Source of the DNA: Anaerolineaceae bacterium | GTDB taxonomy: Bacteria; Chloroflexota; Anaerolineae; Anaerolineales; Anaerolineaceae | Assembly: GCA_030653365.1 (NCBI GenBank) | Contig: JAURZL010000018.1 | Span: 372,001 to 436,000 of the forward strand | DNA: 64,000 nt | Direction of reading: 5' to 3' | Shown here: in pieces, positions 12,895-35,048 of the stretch | Position numbering within the stretch: position 1 is the stretch's first letter | Layout of the letters: each line of letters starts with the position of its first letter | Position numbers and translations under genes: made by a program | Notes under the pieces: generated by a model | What the model was told of the DNA's origin: nothing | Databases searched by the model: none | What the model saw: the letters and a program-made list of their open reading frames with translations, nothing else

Positions 12895-14451
12895 ATGAAA
12901 AAGAACAATGTAACATTCAAAGAATACCAAATGGGACAACCCATGTTGTTACCACCGAATCTAGAAGAACTCATACCTGAAAAGCACTTAGTAAGGGTAA
13001 TCAATCGGGTGGTAGAAGAGATGGATCTAAGTGAGATCATAAGTGGGTACAAGGGAGGTGGAACCAGCAGTTATCATCCTAAGATGTTACTGAAATTGAT
13101 CGTATACGCTTATGCCGAGAAAAACTATTCTGGGCGCCAAATAGCCAAAGCGATCCGTGAAAACATAAACTACATGTGGTTAAGTGGCGGGAATCGACCG
13201 GATTTTCGGACAATAAATCGCTTTCGGGGAGAGAGATTGAAAGGAAAGATCCAGGCAGTATTTACAGAAGTATTGGAATATTTAATTGAACACAAATTCA
13301 TCAAATTAGAGAATTACTTTGTAGATGGAACAAAGATAGAAGCGAATGCAAATCGTTATAGTTTTGCCTGGAAGAAGAGTACTCAGAAATACAAGAAAAA
13401 CTTACAAGCCAAAGTAAAAGAACTATTTGTTGAGATCGATAAAATCAATGCGGCTGAAGAAGCGGAATATGGGGATCGCGATTTGGAAGAATTGGGGGAA
13501 GAAAGTGAAATTGACACAGAGAAACTGAAAGACCTGGCAAAGAGATTAAGCAAAAAACTGGAAGAAGAACCTGCAAACAAAAAACTAAAAAAGAGCTTGA
13601 AGAAACTGAAGAGTGATTTCATTCCACGGATGGAGAAGTATGAAAATTATGAGAAAGTAATTGGAAAACGCAATAGCTTCTCTAAAACCGATCATGATGC
13701 AACCTTTATGCGTATGAAAGATGACCATATGAGAAATCGGTCCTTGAAACCTGGATATAACGTGCAGATTGGAACAGAGAACCAATTTATTGTCGGGTAC
13801 AGTCTCCATCAAGTTTCAACAGATAGTTCAACTTTGCCAGAACATTTACGCCAAGTAAAAGAGAATCTAGGAGTGCTCCCGAAGACATTGATCGCAGATG
13901 CTGGATATGGGAGTGAAGAGAATTACTTATTATTAGAGAACGAAGAGATTGAAGCGTATGTCAAATACAATACTTTTTATAAAGAGAGTAAGAAAAAACG
14001 AAAAGGGAATGAAAAGGATAGGTATTTAGCACGGAATTTTCATTATGATGAAGAAAATAATGTATTTATTTGCCCAGAAAATAAGTGCCTGCTATATGAA
14101 GGCCAAAAGCGGGTTAGGACAGATGCTGGCTTCCTAACCGAAAGGAAAACCTATCGTTGTCATGATTGTGGAGATTGTGCGGTACGTGACTTATGTACTC
14201 AATCTAATTATGGTCGCAGTATACAATACAGCCACCGATTAACCAACTTTCGGAAAAAAGCTTTTGAAAGATTGAATTCCGAAGTAGGGAGGAAGCTAAG
14301 AAAACTGCGATATCCTGAGGTGGAAGCAGTATTTGGATTGATTAAGTGGAATAAAAAATTCCGTAGATTCAATCTCAGGGGTTTAGAAAAGGTTACAGTA
14401 GAGTGGGGGTTGGTCAGTATTGCACATAATATAGCAAAAATAGCGGCTTGA
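12895..14451 (+). CDS. IS1182-family transposase
   Basis: KNNVTFKEYQMGQPMLLPPNLEELIPEKHLVRVINRVVEEMDL...YHPKMLLKLIVYAYAEKNYSGRQIAKAIRENINYMWLSGGNRPDFRTINRFR...YFVDGTKIEANANRYSF. Confidence 0.93.
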   Translation: MKKNNVTFKEYQMGQPMLLPPNLEELIPEKHLVRVINRVVEEMDLSEIISGYKGGGTSSYHPKMLLKLIVYAYAEKNYSGRQIAKAIRENINYMWLSGGNRPDFRTINRFRGERLKGKIQAVFTEVLEYLIEHKFIKLENYFVDGTKIEANANRYSFAWKKSTQKYKKNLQAKVKELFVEIDKINAAEEAEYGDRDLEELGEESEIDTEKLKDLAKRLSKKLEEEPANKKLKKSLKKLKSDFIPRMEKYENYEKVIGKRNSFSKTDHDATFMRMKDDHMRNRSLKPGYNVQIGTENQFIVGYSLHQVSTDSSTLPEHLRQVKENLGVLPKTLIADAGYGSEENYLLLENEEIEAYVKYNTFYKESKKKRKGNEKDRYLARNFHYDEENNVFICPENKCLLYEGQKRVRTDAGFLTERKTYRCHDCGDCAVRDLCTQSNYGRSIQYSHRLTNFRKKAFERLNSEVGRKLRKLRYPEVEAVFGLIKWNKKFRRFNLRGLEKVTVEWGLVSIAHNIAKIAA

Positions 14452-28971: not shown

Positions 28972-30624
28972 TTATTGAGGCTTACTCAAGATAAATAGAC
29001 CACGAGAACTATCTGTCACAAACACCACTTCATCCGTGGCAAAGATACTGGAAACATCATCAATTTCAGCATATTTGGCAACCAATTTAGGATGGGCGGG
29101 GTCGTTGATATCAATTGCCACAATACCGCTCTCCAGGGTTTGGTTCCAGGTTCCGTGATCGAGACCAAAAGAAAAACTCAGGTAGACCATTTCACCACTG
29201 AGAGATGCTTCCATGAAGCTTTGGCGGCTGGCAGCCCCGGGTGGTATAAGTTCGTAGTTGCCGATCAGTTCCATAAACCTTCCCATTTTAATTGGCTTTG
29301 CAGGATTGCTGATGTCCACGATGATCAAGCCTTCATCCCAACCAGTGATGTAGGCTCTTTGGTCGATCAAGATGATACTGGACCCCCAGCCGGTATCGAC
29401 ACTGGCAATTTCAGCAGGTTCAGCAGGGTTGTGGAAATCCACAATATGTAAACGGTTGGCGATCATATAAACGATACCATCTTTAACCGCAACGCCAGGA
29501 TATGCGACATTGGAATAAAAGGAGAATTCCCCAATAGTTTCAGGCTGTGATGGGTCGCTCACGTCAACTGCGATCAAAGTGTCGCTGCGTGTCAGGTACA
29601 CGGTTTGATCTTCCACAGCTAAATTTTTTATTGAGCGGTGCCCCATGGTTAACTCCCCTAGAAAACGGGGAACTGAAGGTGTTTGGATATCCAATATTAT
29701 TAATCTATCACCTATTGCTGATGAGCCACTAATTCCACCCTGATCTGTTATGTATGCTATTTGACCGTCCACAATGACGTTTTGGGCATTATCGAGGGGG
29801 TATGATCCAATTTCTTTCGGATTTGAGAAATCGCTCACATCCAATATCTTCAGTCCATCCCCACCATTGGCGATATAGGCTATGTCGTTTTGGATAATCA
29901 CTTTCAGGGTTTCACGTGAGGTCAACCAGCTGCCAATCAAGTCAAAATGTGGCAGCGGTGTTGGGGTAGATGTTGGGGTTATAGGCTGCGTTGCAATCAT
30001 TTTTGGATCAACCGGTGTCATTTGACCTATCGACACATTTTCTGTTGGTTTGATTGTAGATGGTTCTCCCCACAGCTTTGGGATAATAATCGCAGCAATG
30101 ATCGCAAGTCCGACAATTCCCAATAAAATCGGCAACATGATTATTGGCTTCCATCTTTTTACTGGCGCTTTAGAATATGCTGCTGGAGGTTTGAGGTTTT
30201 CTTCAAAAATTGCTTTTTCACCCCCAGCCATAAAGTGTTGTAAGGTTGTTTGCAGTTTTTCAATATGCCTCTCAAGAGGTGGTGTAATCGCATCCAACCA
30301 GTGTTCAGTGGAAAGGAAATATGCCATGGCACCAGTAGGGTCGATGTTCTCAATTCTGAATGGGATTATTATTACATTATTGGCAACTGCTCGCTCAACT
30401 TCTCTGACAACTTGATTGGAACGGTTAGAATTCTCTGAGAGAATAATCACCATTAATTTACAATTCTGAATGCCTGCAATAATTGCTTCCCCCCAGGATG
30501 TCCCCGGTGTAATATCACGAGGTGCTACCCAACAACGGATACCTCTGTTTTCTAAACCAGCTACAACCGCATCAGCAACCGGCTTGTCTTTGTTTGAATA
30601 ACTGATAAAAACATCATGAGCCAT
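28972..30624 (-). CDS. TIR domain - TM helix - LVIVD-repeat beta-propeller protein
   Basis: MAHDVFISYSNKDKPVADAVVAGLENRGIRCWVAPRDITPGTSWGEAIIAGIQNCKLMVIILSENSNRSNQVVREVERAV; TM PIIMLPILLGIVGLAIIAAIII; repeats AYIANGGDGLKILDVSDFSNPKEIGSY and AYITGWDEGLIIVDISNPAKPIKMG. Confidence 0.92.
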   Translation of the reverse strand: MAHDVFISYSNKDKPVADAVVAGLENRGIRCWVAPRDITPGTSWGEAIIAGIQNCKLMVIILSENSNRSNQVVREVERAVANNVIIIPFRIENIDPTGAMAYFLSTEHWLDAITPPLERHIEKLQTTLQHFMAGGEKAIFEENLKPPAAYSKAPVKRWKPIIMLPILLGIVGLAIIAAIIIPKLWGEPSTIKPTENVSIGQMTPVDPKMIATQPITPTSTPTPLPHFDLIGSWLTSRETLKVIIQNDIAYIANGGDGLKILDVSDFSNPKEIGSYPLDNAQNVIVDGQIAYITDQGGISGSSAIGDRLIILDIQTPSVPRFLGELTMGHRSIKNLAVEDQTVYLTRSDTLIAVDVSDPSQPETIGEFSFYSNVAYPGVAVKDGIVYMIANRLHIVDFHNPAEPAEIASVDTGWGSSIILIDQRAYITGWDEGLIIVDISNPAKPIKMGRFMELIGNYELIPPGAASRQSFMEASLSGEMVYLSFSFGLDHGTWNQTLESGIVAIDINDPAHPKLVAKYAEIDDVSSIFATDEVVFVTDSSRGLFILSKPQ

Positions 30625-30809: not shown

Positions 30810-31598
30810 TTACACTATATTTTTCTCCATAATATGTTGGACAACCGCTTCTGCAGCCTGTTGGTAGGGGCAGAAAAAGTGAATTTGTGGTTTTCGGGAG
30901 AGGTCTAATAATTCTGCTAATCCACTATGGTGCAATCGAACCCATACCGTTACTTCTGGATTTATCTTTTGGATCTTGTACGCTACTTCAAGATTGAGTG
31001 CATCCTCACCTGCAGTTAAAATAACCAGTTTGGCTGAGCGGATATTTGCCTGCTCCAACGTTTCTACATCTGCCATATCACCCTGAAAATGAACCGTTTT
31101 ATTATTGTTTAATCCCAATTCAGCCAATAATCCAGACCTGGGATCAATCAGGACTAAATCCATCAGAGGTTGTTCAAGTATCATTCGCTTTAACAATTGA
31201 CGTCCCATTTCTCCCACACCACACATGACTGTATGATTTACAAAGGTTTTTACAACCATTAAATCCCATTCCTTTCTATTCACATTGCGTTGCATGTAAA
31301 TCGAAAAAATTCTTAATACCCCTTCCCCAAGAATAATCGCCATTCCAATTGGCATAATGAAAGCCATTAAGACGGGGATGATTCTTCCCCCAATATCAAT
31401 GTTGTTGATTGTGGCGAGATAAAATGAATCTACAAATAGTTGTGGCCATCCTACATGAGGAGAATTACCAAATAATTTGAGGAGAATTGCCCCCAGAACC
31501 AACAATAAAACAAACAATAGCAGGTTAATCCAAACTGAGGAAAATATTATCCTCAGGTCCCGCCAGGTTTGTTTTATCATCCGATACGCCTCTTTCAC
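30810..31598 (-). CDS. two-TM ion channel with TrkA-N/RCK regulatory domain
   Basis: Two TM helices around a pore-like loop (FVDSFYLATINNIDIGGRIIPV), then VMCGVGEMGRQLLKRMI...LVLIDPRSGLLAELG...VHFQGDMADVETLEQANIRSAKLVILTAGEDALNLEVAYKIQ. Confidence 0.88.
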   Translation of the reverse strand: MKEAYRMIKQTWRDLRIIFSSVWINLLLFVLLLVLGAILLKLFGNSPHVGWPQLFVDSFYLATINNIDIGGRIIPVLMAFIMPIGMAIILGEGVLRIFSIYMQRNVNRKEWDLMVVKTFVNHTVMCGVGEMGRQLLKRMILEQPLMDLVLIDPRSGLLAELGLNNNKTVHFQGDMADVETLEQANIRSAKLVILTAGEDALNLEVAYKIQKINPEVTVWVRLHHSGLAELLDLSRKPQIHFFCPYQQAAEAVVQHIMEKNIV

Positions 31599-31600
31599 GT

Positions 31601-34366
31601 CTATTCTTTTAATTTAATAATTTTGTAACCAACATTTTCCAAAATCCAGGGGATTGCATGTGTAATAACACGATCAAGATTGCGGTAATGTTCACTTAAG
31701 AGCTCGCCTTCAGCAAGACCCATTTTTTGGATATAACATTTTCCATATACTGCTTCAGCAATCTTTCGTTCTCCTTCATCCCAGGCAACCAGGGCATCAT
31801 GTTGTTTATTTGGTTTATTCTTTACCGAAGAATATGACCAACCTGAGTCAATATGATGACGCACCCACCGAATATGTTCTAATTGGCTAATCTTTTCGAA
31901 TTCCTGTTTATCCAAAAAATCAGCCTGAGTTTTTGCATCCAATGGGACTATCATGAATCCGACCGCAGCTAGTTTCTCAGGAATTTTCCTGGCATTATGG
32001 TAGTTTTGAGAAACTTCATCCAGTGGCATATCATCAGGAAGATTTTTCATTTGCTCATAATTTGCATGAAATTCTTCTTTAGTAATTGAAAGCGGATGGC
32101 GGTCTTTGACGATTGAAAATACCAATGAATAAATTGTATGGATCCCGACTGCCATCTTTTCAACGATATGTTCATCCAAGGTAATATCATTTACCAGATG
32201 ATAAAAGGCTTCGCCACCTTCAAAATATTTAGGTTTTTGTGAAATTAATTCATAAAATTGTTGTCCATCCACATGTAAATTCATTTGTGATTCAGGGGGT
32301 AAATCTGAGCGATGGTATTTTTCTTTCCCAAACAATTGACTGGTCTTAAAAATGGTTTCCATCGAACGCGTCCCATGTTTATATTTTGGAACCAGCAACA
32401 GGGCATTTAAGACACCATCGTCAATATGAAGAACTCCATTTGCAAAGAGGTGTCTGTAACCAATTTGAAGCAAACTATTGACTAAAATCGCCCTACGTAT
32501 GATATATTCCGGATCAGTATTCTTTGCCAGATTCATGAGGGTTACTCCATCAACAGTTTCACAATCTGATTTTTGGAACGCATAAGGTAAGACCGGGTTA
32601 GGACCCATTACATTAATAAATCCCTTGATACGACTTAAGAAATCAGGACCTTTCTCTGATACTTTAACCTGTCCTTTAAGTTCAAATTCTTCCATACTGG
32701 AACAAGTCCCACCTGCGAAAACAAAGATTGATTTGCCAATATTATGAGTTAGTTGACCTTCTTGAAATTCACCATCCTGCATCGGTGCCAAAAAATATCG
32801 TAGCCAGGCGAGATTTTTGCTATCAAATTCATCCCAAAAGACTAATGGAGTCTTACCTGAGAGGGAAATATCACGCACCGCATGGAAAGCCTGATAAAGA
32901 TCAGTAGGATTATCCTCATTAAATTGTGAAAGATTAAATGTAATGTCTTTAATTTCCTGATCAGGTAAATCCAGTGCTTTTGCTAATTGTTTTATACTGA
33001 AAGACTTGCCGGATCCAGGTGAACCAAAAACTGCAATCGAAAGTGGTTGGTTGTTCTTGTTGAGAAGGTACTCAGTTATCAATGATTTAAGATGGTGCAG
33101 GAATTCGATTTCTTTCCTATCTACTGTGAGTAGGAAATTATATTTGGCGATTGGAATATTCCAGCTTTGCAAAGCCTTCATTGGGCCAAACAAGGCGATC
33201 TGACGGGCTAATGAATACAGATCCCATTTTGTCATGCCTAATAATGACCAATCTTTATGTTCATAAGCCTTACCGATAATGTTATCCTGACAATAAGATT
33301 CAAATAATGAGTACTCCAATGAAACAGGACTAAACTCATGTGTCTTTTTTGAGCCATAAATCTTACATATTTCAATAGGAATTATTTTAAGCGGTAAACT
33401 TCCTTCAGATACATTTGCACCTTCCAAAGACATTGCTCGTCTGGCTAACAAATGAGCTCTTATAGCCTGATCAAAATCAATATCTATCCCGTTGTATGGA
33501 AATAATATCTCTTTGGATATTAATGAAATTAATAATTCCAGGTCACCAGGAAGATATCCGGGATGCGCTCTCTCCCAATAACCTTCATTGCCCATTGAAT
33601 CAAAAAATAATTTTATTTCCAGTTTTTGGTTATTGTTATTTACAGGATTATGGATTAACAAACTACCAGTACTGCCAAAGGAAATAATAATATATTCAAT
33701 TGATCTCAACGGATGAAGATTAATATTCCGTTTAAAATAGATTTCGTTAATAATATCTTGAATAGTTTGTTCCCAGGATAAACCTTTACTGATGGAGGTG
33801 TTTAATTTACGTAAATCATCAGCTCGAATTACGATGATTGATTTATTTCCTGCGCTTTTTTGAAATTCCTCCCAAAGATTACCCTCAAACAAAGGAGAAA
33901 AACTTCGATATAGAATCCATTTGTCGGTAAGCACAGCAGAAAGGTTGGGAATTTTCAGGTTTCTGATATCCATTCCCCAATCCTGGAATATCACCAGGTC
34001 AGCTTCTACAATTTTATTGATTATTGAATCTCCCAATTCGGGATGGTATGATTGTCCAACATGAACAATTTCCTGGACTCTCCAGGGTTTATTCTTCCCA
34101 TCATTGTATTGTTTCCAAGTAGCAAAAGCATGATTGACTGAATTATCCACAGGTGTAATTTTCTCAATGTAGTCTTCCTGAATGCCCGCATCAACCACCG
34201 TCCAATCAATTACGGGATTAGATTCGGAAAAGTAATTCTTTACAATTTCCAAAAATTTACGAGTACTGGTTTCTCCCCATAATTCTTTAAAAACATTTTT
34301 CCCAATGGCAGCAGGAACTATGTTCCAGTGAATCGCATTATCACTCAGCAAAAAGATATTTTTCAT
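31601..34366 (-). CDS. large protein with AAA ATPase core and C-terminal RyR-like domain
   Basis: Walker A VFGSPGSGKSF, Walker B PLVFWDEFDS; C-terminus LEHIRWVRHHIDSGWSYSSVKNKPNKQHDALVAWDEGERK resembles prokaryotic RyR domains; stop codon lies 2 nt before the channel gene start. Confidence 0.82.
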   Translation of the reverse strand: MKNIFLLSDNAIHWNIVPAAIGKNVFKELWGETSTRKFLEIVKNYFSESNPVIDWTVVDAGIQEDYIEKITPVDNSVNHAFATWKQYNDGKNKPWRVQEIVHVGQSYHPELGDSIINKIVEADLVIFQDWGMDIRNLKIPNLSAVLTDKWILYRSFSPLFEGNLWEEFQKSAGNKSIIVIRADDLRKLNTSISKGLSWEQTIQDIINEIYFKRNINLHPLRSIEYIIISFGSTGSLLIHNPVNNNNQKLEIKLFFDSMGNEGYWERAHPGYLPGDLELLISLISKEILFPYNGIDIDFDQAIRAHLLARRAMSLEGANVSEGSLPLKIIPIEICKIYGSKKTHEFSPVSLEYSLFESYCQDNIIGKAYEHKDWSLLGMTKWDLYSLARQIALFGPMKALQSWNIPIAKYNFLLTVDRKEIEFLHHLKSLITEYLLNKNNQPLSIAVFGSPGSGKSFSIKQLAKALDLPDQEIKDITFNLSQFNEDNPTDLYQAFHAVRDISLSGKTPLVFWDEFDSKNLAWLRYFLAPMQDGEFQEGQLTHNIGKSIFVFAGGTCSSMEEFELKGQVKVSEKGPDFLSRIKGFINVMGPNPVLPYAFQKSDCETVDGVTLMNLAKNTDPEYIIRRAILVNSLLQIGYRHLFANGVLHIDDGVLNALLLVPKYKHGTRSMETIFKTSQLFGKEKYHRSDLPPESQMNLHVDGQQFYELISQKPKYFEGGEAFYHLVNDITLDEHIVEKMAVGIHTIYSLVFSIVKDRHPLSITKEEFHANYEQMKNLPDDMPLDEVSQNYHNARKIPEKLAAVGFMIVPLDAKTQADFLDKQEFEKISQLEHIRWVRHHIDSGWSYSSVKNKPNKQHDALVAWDEGERKIAEAVYGKCYIQKMGLAEGELLSEHYRNLDRVITHAIPWILENVGYKIIKLKE

Positions 34367-34466: not shown

Positions 34467-35048
34467 TTGGGGAAACCATCTACTTCCACAGAATTAAAGA
34501 TAGCTGTGACTGGACACCGGTTTATTGATTCGAATCAAATCCTTCTTGATTCGATCAATTCAATCATTCATGAATTATTAGACAAGAATATTGGCATAGT
34601 TTTTTTTCTTTATTCTGCACTGGCTGAAGGGAGTGATCAATTAGTTGCAGAATTAGCTTTACTTCATGAAGAAATTCAACTTATTGTTCCATTGCCTATA
34701 CCCTCTTCAGAATATTTGGATGATTTTGAAACGCATGTTGGTATTCAGAAATTTACTGAACTGGTTCAATCAGCTCATAGAATCATTCAATTACCAGACC
34801 AACCTAACCATGAATCTGCGTATCAATTTCTAGGAGAATACCTGGTGCAAGAATGCGATATCATAATAGCAATTTGGAATGGGGAGTTTTCACAAACAAA
34901 AGGTGGAACGGGTGAGGTTGTAAAATTTGCAATCGAAAAGAAGAAGCCAGTCTATTGGATATACTCTAATCAATTAGACGGCGTAGCAATTAATTCTTTG
35001 AAAGATAAGAAACAAATTGGTGAGGTTGAATATTTTAGAGATGCTTAA
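34467..35048 (+). CDS. SLOG-like (Rossmannoid nucleotide/ligand-binding) protein
   Basis: TTG start with AAAGGA upstream; LKIAVTGHRFI...YSALAEGSDQLVAELALL...LIVPLPIPSSEYLDDFE...AYQFLGEYLVQECDIIIAIWNGEFSQTKGGTGEVVKFAIEKKKPVYWI. Confidence 0.75.
   Translation: MGKPSTSTELKIAVTGHRFIDSNQILLDSINSIIHELLDKNIGIVFFLYSALAEGSDQLVAELALLHEEIQLIVPLPIPSSEYLDDFETHVGIQKFTELVQSAHRIIQLPDQPNHESAYQFLGEYLVQECDIIIAIWNGEFSQTKGGTGEVVKFAIEKKKPVYWIYSNQLDGVAINSLKDKKQIGEVEYFRDA

What the first reader, a model, noticed from the sequence alone, without database searches (positions are those of the whole stretch)
31601..34366. AAA ATPase with C-terminal RyR-like domain and a possible ribokinase-like N-terminal domain
Seen: clear Walker A (GSPGSGKS) and Walker B (LVFWDEFD) mid-protein and a C-terminal RyR-like LEHIRWVRHHIDSGWSYSSVKNKPNKQHDALVAWDE. 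The first ~300 aa (ADDLRKL...IEYIIISFGSTGSLLIHN...GYLPGDLELLISLI...DFDQAIRAHLLARRAMSLEGAN) look like a degenerate PfkB/ribokinase fold: NxxE-like region, TxGxxG-like strand, and a GxGD-like loop reduced to PGD. A ribokinase-like/AAA/RyR fusion would be an unusual architecture that suggests nucleoside or ADP-ribose sensing.
Basis: partly seen in the sequence, partly recalled or inferred. Interest (0 to 1): 0.72.

Follow-up and report, generated by a model that had tools for sequence, protein, structure and literature searches.

The report
AAA–RyR sensor beside a channel cassette
A bacterial motor protein that joins a worn-down sugar-kinase fold to the ligand-binding domain of our muscle calcium channels is conserved next to a nucleotide-sensor gene and an ion-channel-like gene, which points to an uncharacterised and now testable bacterial (probably anti-virus) signalling system that responds to nucleotide signals.

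Summary
The minus-strand ORF at 31601–34366 (921 aa) has three parts. First, an N-terminal PfkB/ribokinase fold: the AlphaFold model has pLDDT 90 and all 50 listed PDB matches are PfkB kinases, although no sequence search detects the relationship. The usual catalytic Asp is not conserved in the family. Second, a divergent AAA+ ATPase with its motifs intact. Third, a true RyR domain (family profile vs RyR2, E 7e-42). Its residues H831, W834, H856 and D898 correspond to the four ligand/catalytic residues of RyDEP, a phage RyR enzyme that binds and cleaves 2'/3'cADPR (2026 preprint).

A scan of 85,462 genomes found 321 relatives; 81 loci were studied. Repeated partners are a YpsA-like SLOG protein (41/81, fused in 8) and a 2TM–RCK channel-like protein (25/81, mostly with its own RyR domain). 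TIR genes (26/81) concentrate within 1 kb. The window has all of these: divergent SLOG, channel 2 bp downstream, then TIR–β-propeller. SLATT pores, a caspase or DUF4062 proteins occur elsewhere.

Best reading: an ADP-ribose-type nucleotide sensor that gates or licenses a membrane/NADase effector, probably for phage defence. Ligand, channel activity and defence are untested.

The parts
31601..34366 (-). Main protein, 921 aa: PfkB-fold domain, AAA+ ATPase, RyR domain
   Evidence: ORF; domains
33332..34363 (-). PfkB/ribokinase-fold domain, about residues 2-345; catalytic Asp not conserved in the family
   Evidence: AF2 pLDDT 90; Foldseek top 50 all PfkB, 5.7e-9; residue counts
32207..33091 (-). 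AAA+ ATPase domain, about residues 426-720
   Evidence: Walker A, Walker B, SR arginine-finger-like and HGxRS sensor-2-like motifs in 69-76 of 76 homologues
33002..33025 (-). Walker A GSPGSGKS (448-455)
32822..32845 (-). Walker B LVFWDEFD (508-515)
31604..32089 (-). RyR domain (760-921) with H831, W834, H856, D898
   Evidence: Profile vs RyR2 7e-42; residues match RyDEP H75/W78/H100/D117
30810..31598 (-). 2TM + RCK (TrkA-N) channel-like protein, 262 aa, GTG start 2 bp after the main stop; lacks the RyR domain seen in most relatives
   Evidence: TrkA_N 5e-16; profile aligns with MthK TM+RCK; two TM segments
34467..35048 (+). YpsA-like SLOG protein, 193 aa, divergent from the main gene
   Evidence: AF2 pLDDT 92; Foldseek YpsA 1.7e-8, DprA, LOG, ThsA SLOG; SLOG Pfam families in relatives
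28972..30624 (-). TIR domain + TM + LVIVD beta-propeller protein, 550 aa, candidate signal maker or effector; Glu74 kept
   Evidence: TIR_2 1.6e-23, LVIVD 1.2e-30; one of 3 TIR_2 in the genome; Glu in 36 of 37

Best explanation
The protein is the ATP-driven sensor/switch of a nucleotide-signalling cassette. A TIR enzyme (or the SLOG protein) makes or processes an ADP-ribose-type signal when the cell is challenged. The RyR domain, helped by the YpsA-like SLOG partner, binds that signal. The AAA+ module, with its inactive PfkB-fold domain as a ligand-binding or docking platform, converts binding into a change that opens or licenses the membrane partner. That partner is a 2TM–RCK channel-like protein here and a SLOG–SLATT pore in other lineages. 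The outcome would be ion leak and/or NAD+ loss that stops growth, most likely as phage defence. Shown: the folds, the retained motifs, the gene linkage and the gene fusions. Inferred: the ligand, the direction of signalling, channel activity and a role in defence.
For: RyR residues H831/W834/H856/D898 equal RyDEP H75/W78/H100/D117, with all four in 53 of 77 main-protein RyR domains; RyDEP binds/cleaves 2'/3'cADPR and animal R12 binds adenine nucleotide. SLOG adjacent or fused in 41/81 loci, 8 fusions; channel in 25/81. SLOG fold closest to YpsA, and matching the ThsA SLOG bound to 3'cADPR at 1.2e-3; YpsA-like SLOGs include cADPR sensors (PMC9503650). TIR density 115/Mb in the first kb against about 12/Mb at 5-8 kb; in the window's genome one of only three TIR_2 domains lies here. 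AAA+ motifs kept in nearly all 76 homologues. Membrane and effector partners are swapped: SLATT fusions, a caspase-like gene, DUF4062 proteins, and an Arcobacter plasmid with RyR, NAD-binding and DUF4062 genes near a type I restriction gene.
Against: No biochemistry. 29 of 81 loci (many with short flanks) show neither SLOG nor channel nearby, including all Clostridium copies; 55 of 81 lack a TIR within 8 kb. H856 is replaced (N/D/S/Q) in 20 of 77 main RyR domains, and the channel RyR domains keep all four residues in only 3 of 18. The window lies in ordinary housekeeping genes, not a defence island, and PADLOC gives little on neighbours. The channel-like protein has no known selectivity filter.
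Confidence: 0.55

Rival explanations
1. A housekeeping ion-homeostasis regulator. The AAA–RyR protein senses adenine-nucleotide or energy state (ATP/ADP, NAD) and tunes a K+-channel-like protein; TIR neighbours are incidental.
For: RCK partner; animal R12 binds ATP/ADP; solo chromosomal copies in Clostridium and Chlorobiaceae; no defence island in the window.
Against: Patchy presence (5 of 399 genomes of the phylum), TIR enrichment that falls with distance, SLOG fusions and SLATT/caspase/DUF4062 swaps.
Confidence: 0.22
2. The RyR domain is an enzyme (glycosidase) like RyDEP that clears cADPR-type signals, so the protein switches signalling off instead of reading it.
For: Both catalytic residues of RyDEP (H75, D117) have equivalents in most main-protein RyR domains.
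Against: Of nine phage RyR proteins in that study only RyDEP cleaved; six of the eight homologues bound without cleaving, so the residues do not predict cleavage. Fusion to an AAA+ module and linkage to a channel fit a sensor better.
Confidence: 0.13
3. The PfkB-fold domain is an active nucleoside or sugar kinase that makes the messenger.
For: PfkB fold and GGAA-like helix in relatives; the window has PGD at the loop.
Against: Asp is absent at both candidate catalytic positions in the family (275: Y46/L9/K8, D only in the window; 277: S47/T15/E4), and the window itself has lost the GGAA motif.
Confidence: 0.07

Closest known systems
RyDEP and phage RyR-domain proteins (PF02026; PMC13232231)
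   Same: RyR domain with the same four ligand/catalytic residues at the same spacing
   Different: Phage proteins act against defence and the tested part is the RyR domain alone; here the domain sits in a host AAA+ protein with a PfkB-fold domain and channel/SLOG/TIR neighbours
Thoeris (ThsB TIR + ThsA SLOG effector)
   Same: TIR gene next to a gene with a YpsA-like SLOG domain; SLOG model also matches ThsA SLOG:3'cADPR
   Different: SLOG is free-standing or fused to AAA–RyR or SLATT, not to SIR2; extra AAA–RyR and channel genes; NCBIfam/PADLOC Thoeris matches to the TIR are weak and far below cut-off
Animal ryanodine receptor R12 domain and TRPM channels
   Same: RyR domain and SLOG domain linked to an ion-channel-like membrane protein
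   Different: 2TM–RCK architecture, separate genes, an AAA+ ATPase, unrelated pore
Nucleotide-centric conflict systems of Burroughs et al. 2015 (SLOG, SLATT, TIR)
   Same: SLOG sensors, SLATT pores, TIR effectors and swappable membrane effectors
   Different: The PfkB–AAA+–RyR protein was not found described in the papers searched; whether the 2015 survey listed it could not be checked

Membership tests
RyR domain (PF02026) | Sequence similarity to the R12 repeat | tested here: met
   Single protein 7e-7; family profile 7e-42; single-protein Pfam score below gathering
RyR domain (PF02026) | Ligand residues H, W, H, D of RyDEP | tested here: met
   H831/W834/H856/D898 in the window (D after a ~25-aa insertion); 53 of 77 relatives have all four
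RyR domain (PF02026) | Binding of cADPR isomers or adenine nucleotides | not testable with these tools
   needs ITC or shift assays
PfkB/ribokinase fold | Three-dimensional fold | tested here: met
   E 5.7e-9, probability 1.00, TM by target 0.44-0.58
PfkB/ribokinase fold | Sequence similarity to PfkB (PF00294) | tested here: not met
   no match
PfkB/ribokinase fold | GxGD catalytic Asp | tested here: not met
   not conserved at either candidate position in 75 homologues; placement by sequence/secondary structure only
AAA+ ATPase | Walker A, Walker B, arginine finger, sensor 2 | tested here: met
   ATPase activity itself not testable; clade unresolved
SLOG superfamily (partner 34467-35048) | Rossmannoid SLOG fold and glycine-rich loops | tested here: met
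   Foldseek YpsA 1.7e-8; G14, R16, G53 invariant and GGT loop in 41-42 of 43
Thoeris | TIR gene plus ThsA with SIR2 (or other known ThsA effector) and SLOG | tested here: not met
   No SIR2 or ThsA gene among the four cassette proteins; weak TIR-only matches to Thoeris models
K+ channel of 2TM–RCK type | Two TM segments and an RCK/TrkA-N domain | tested here: met
K+ channel of 2TM–RCK type | TVGYG-type selectivity filter | tested here: not met
   Loop reads NNIDIGG in the window and ESGxxxGP-like in others

The most novel reading that the evidence does not exclude
A previously undescribed prokaryotic immune system in which a PfkB-fold–AAA+–RyR protein, with a YpsA-like SLOG partner, reads TIR-made cyclic ADP-ribose isomers and opens a 2TM–RCK channel: a bacterial counterpart, and possibly a source, of the cADPR/RyR and SLOG/TRPM channel signalling of animals, which phages could counter with free-standing RyR proteins.
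Probability: 0.3. Interest if true: 0.88.

Novelty: new variant of a known kind. Interest (0 to 1): 0.62.

Why it matters
RyR domains were reported in 2026 to bind and cleave the cADPR isomers used in bacterial and plant immunity, but only in phage proteins that defeat defence. Here the same residues sit in a widespread bacterial AAA+ protein linked to SLOG, TIR and channel genes, giving a likely host-side user of RyR-domain signalling. If true, it would put RyR and SLOG modules next to membrane channels in bacteria, a concrete route to the old question of how animal ryanodine receptors and TRPM channels came to respond to ADP-ribose compounds. It also supplies named residues for mutation.

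Tried and rejected
Sequence-only tests of the ribokinase idea (Pfam on 75 members; PDB profile search; hhalign against 17 PfkB proteins) were negative, so the fold claim rests on predicted structure alone. First-pass iterative HMM searches for SLOG and channel partners drifted into the main protein through shared RyR regions and were redone with domain-limited seeds. The viral-contig scan failed three times; phage records were searched instead and gave only RyR-domain hits. Burroughs et al. 2015, the most likely prior description of parts of this network, is not held. Thoeris membership was considered and rejected (no SIR2/ThsA). No clear defence-island signal was found with PADLOC.

Full report
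WHAT IS THERE. Pfam sees AAA and RyR just below its cut-offs. A PDB sequence search with the single protein puts ryanodine-receptor chains first (7e-7). With 36 family members as a profile the RyR match to RyR2 reaches 7e-42, and bacterial 'putative ryanodine receptor' structures 2e-18.

N-TERMINAL DOMAIN. No sequence method finds PfkB: Pfam on 75 homologues, a PDB profile search and hhalign against PfkB proteins of related genomes all fail. The AlphaFold model of residues 2-430 is confident (pLDDT 90, pTM 0.92), and Foldseek against the PDB returns only PfkB kinases in its 50 listed rows (5.7e-9, probability 1.00; TM by target mostly 0.50-0.58). By inspection the order of strands and helices is that of a ribokinase. 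Most relatives keep a GDVTxDW first strand and a GGAA helix, which the window protein has lost. The catalytic Asp is not kept: at position 275 the family has Y46/L9/K8 and Asp only in the window; at 277 it has S47/T15/E4. Other residues are invariant: D184, R186, S197, W198, E199, E261, G274, G316. I read this as a PfkB-fold binding or docking module, not a working kinase.

AAA+ AND RyR. The AAA+ Walker and arginine-finger motifs are kept in nearly all 76 homologues, so ATPase activity is expected; the clade is divergent (best PDB matches VPS4, about 0.006, apart from a short 7e-4 match). In the RyR domain, H831, W834 and H856 have the same spacing (3 and 25) as RyDEP H75, W78 and H100. D898 corresponds to D117 after an insertion of about 25 aa; relatives without the insertion, such as L002, have the exact spacing of 17. 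All four are present in 53 of 77 main-protein RyR domains. RyDEP uses these residues to bind and cleave 2'/3'cADPR (PMC13232231), and animal R12 binds adenine nucleotide on the equivalent Trp (PMC12627627).

THE CASSETTE. A scan of 85,462 genomes gave 321 relatives, and the best 80 were kept, from Chloroflexota, Acidobacteriota, Chlorobiota, Bacillota, Actinomycetota, Planctomycetota, an archaeal MAG and others (tree). Two plasmid records carry the AAA-containing protein, and a third matches only in the RyR domain. Among 81 loci (the window included), a SLOG protein lies within 3 kb in 41, fused to the C-terminus of the main protein in 8. A 2TM–RCK protein lies within 6 kb in 25, most of them with their own C-terminal RyR domain. 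Many loci are short contigs, so these are lower bounds. The SLOG model (pLDDT 92) matches YpsA best, then DprA, LOG and the ThsA SLOG:3'cADPR structure. The channel profile aligns with MthK from the TM part into the RCK domain, without a K+ filter. In other loci the SLOG is fused to SLATT-type 2TM pores (SLATT_1 4.3e-7, above cut-off, in L023).

THE WINDOW. It holds SLOG (+, divergent), main (-), channel (-, 2 bp later) and TIR–TM–LVIVD propeller (-). The genome has a single RyR, a single SLOG of this type and three TIR_2 domains, one of them here. Across loci, TIR genes concentrate next to the main gene: 17 in 148 kb in the first kb against 3 in 257 kb at 5-8 kb. L044 has the same main-channel-TIR order; L013 has a caspase-like gene after the channel; several loci have DUF4062-type proteins instead (the caspase and DUF4062 labels there are by eye, except on the annotated Arcobacter plasmid).

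HOW IT PROBABLY WORKS. Shown: folds, motif retention, linkage, fusions and partner swapping. Inferred: a TIR-made or SLOG-processed ADP-ribose compound is read by RyR and SLOG; the AAA+ module uses ATP to convert this into opening or licensing of a membrane effector and/or NAD+ loss. Confidence 0.55 for this class of mechanism, about 0.3 for the specific cADPR-gated channel version. Main objections: no biochemistry, many solo copies in Clostridium and Chlorobiaceae, TIR in only a third of loci, and an ordinary chromosomal setting in the window.

NOVELTY. I found no paper describing the PfkB–AAA+–RyR protein or this cassette, but the library lacks the 2015 survey most likely to mention parts of it, so I rate it a new variant of the SLOG/TIR nucleotide-signalling kind rather than categorically new.

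Noticed in passing
window 30810-31598 and L044:10412-11191: The window's channel is 66% identical to that of L044 and its TIR domain 53%, while the main proteins are only 34% identical and sit far apart in the tree. This suggests that the channel–TIR module and the main gene exchange partners, or that the window's main protein evolves fast.
   Followed up: partly
L094 (CP146529.1, Arcobacter plasmid): A NAD-binding protein, a stand-alone RyR-domain protein and a DUF4062 protein lie between an integrase and a recombinase, beside a type I restriction subunit: RyR and a possible channel without the AAA protein.
   Followed up: partly
L023:4157-6391, L071:5866-7575, L059:9805-11736, L088:15446-17161: SLOG domains fused to SLATT-like 2TM regions near the main gene, a likely alternative membrane effector (Pfam support is firm only for L023, weak or absent in the others).
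   Followed up: partly
phage records H1-H15 (Gordonia, Vibrio, Arthrobacter, Pseudomonas, unnamed phages): The RyR domain of this family matches unannotated phage proteins in the RyR part only, candidates for RyDEP-like sponges or glycosidases.
   Followed up: no
L088:7713-10429: In one acidobacterial genome the main protein is split into two adjacent ORFs (432 and 471 aa), a second copy besides L067 on the same contig.
   Followed up: no
window 12895-14451: A transposase-like ORF (518 aa, IS1182-like by eye) lies about 17 kb from the cassette.
   Followed up: no
L040, L033, L032, L073, L012: Large proteins that begin with a VFxSSTFxDxxxER motif (DUF4062-type by eye) flank the main gene where no TIR was found in some loci.
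   Followed up: no
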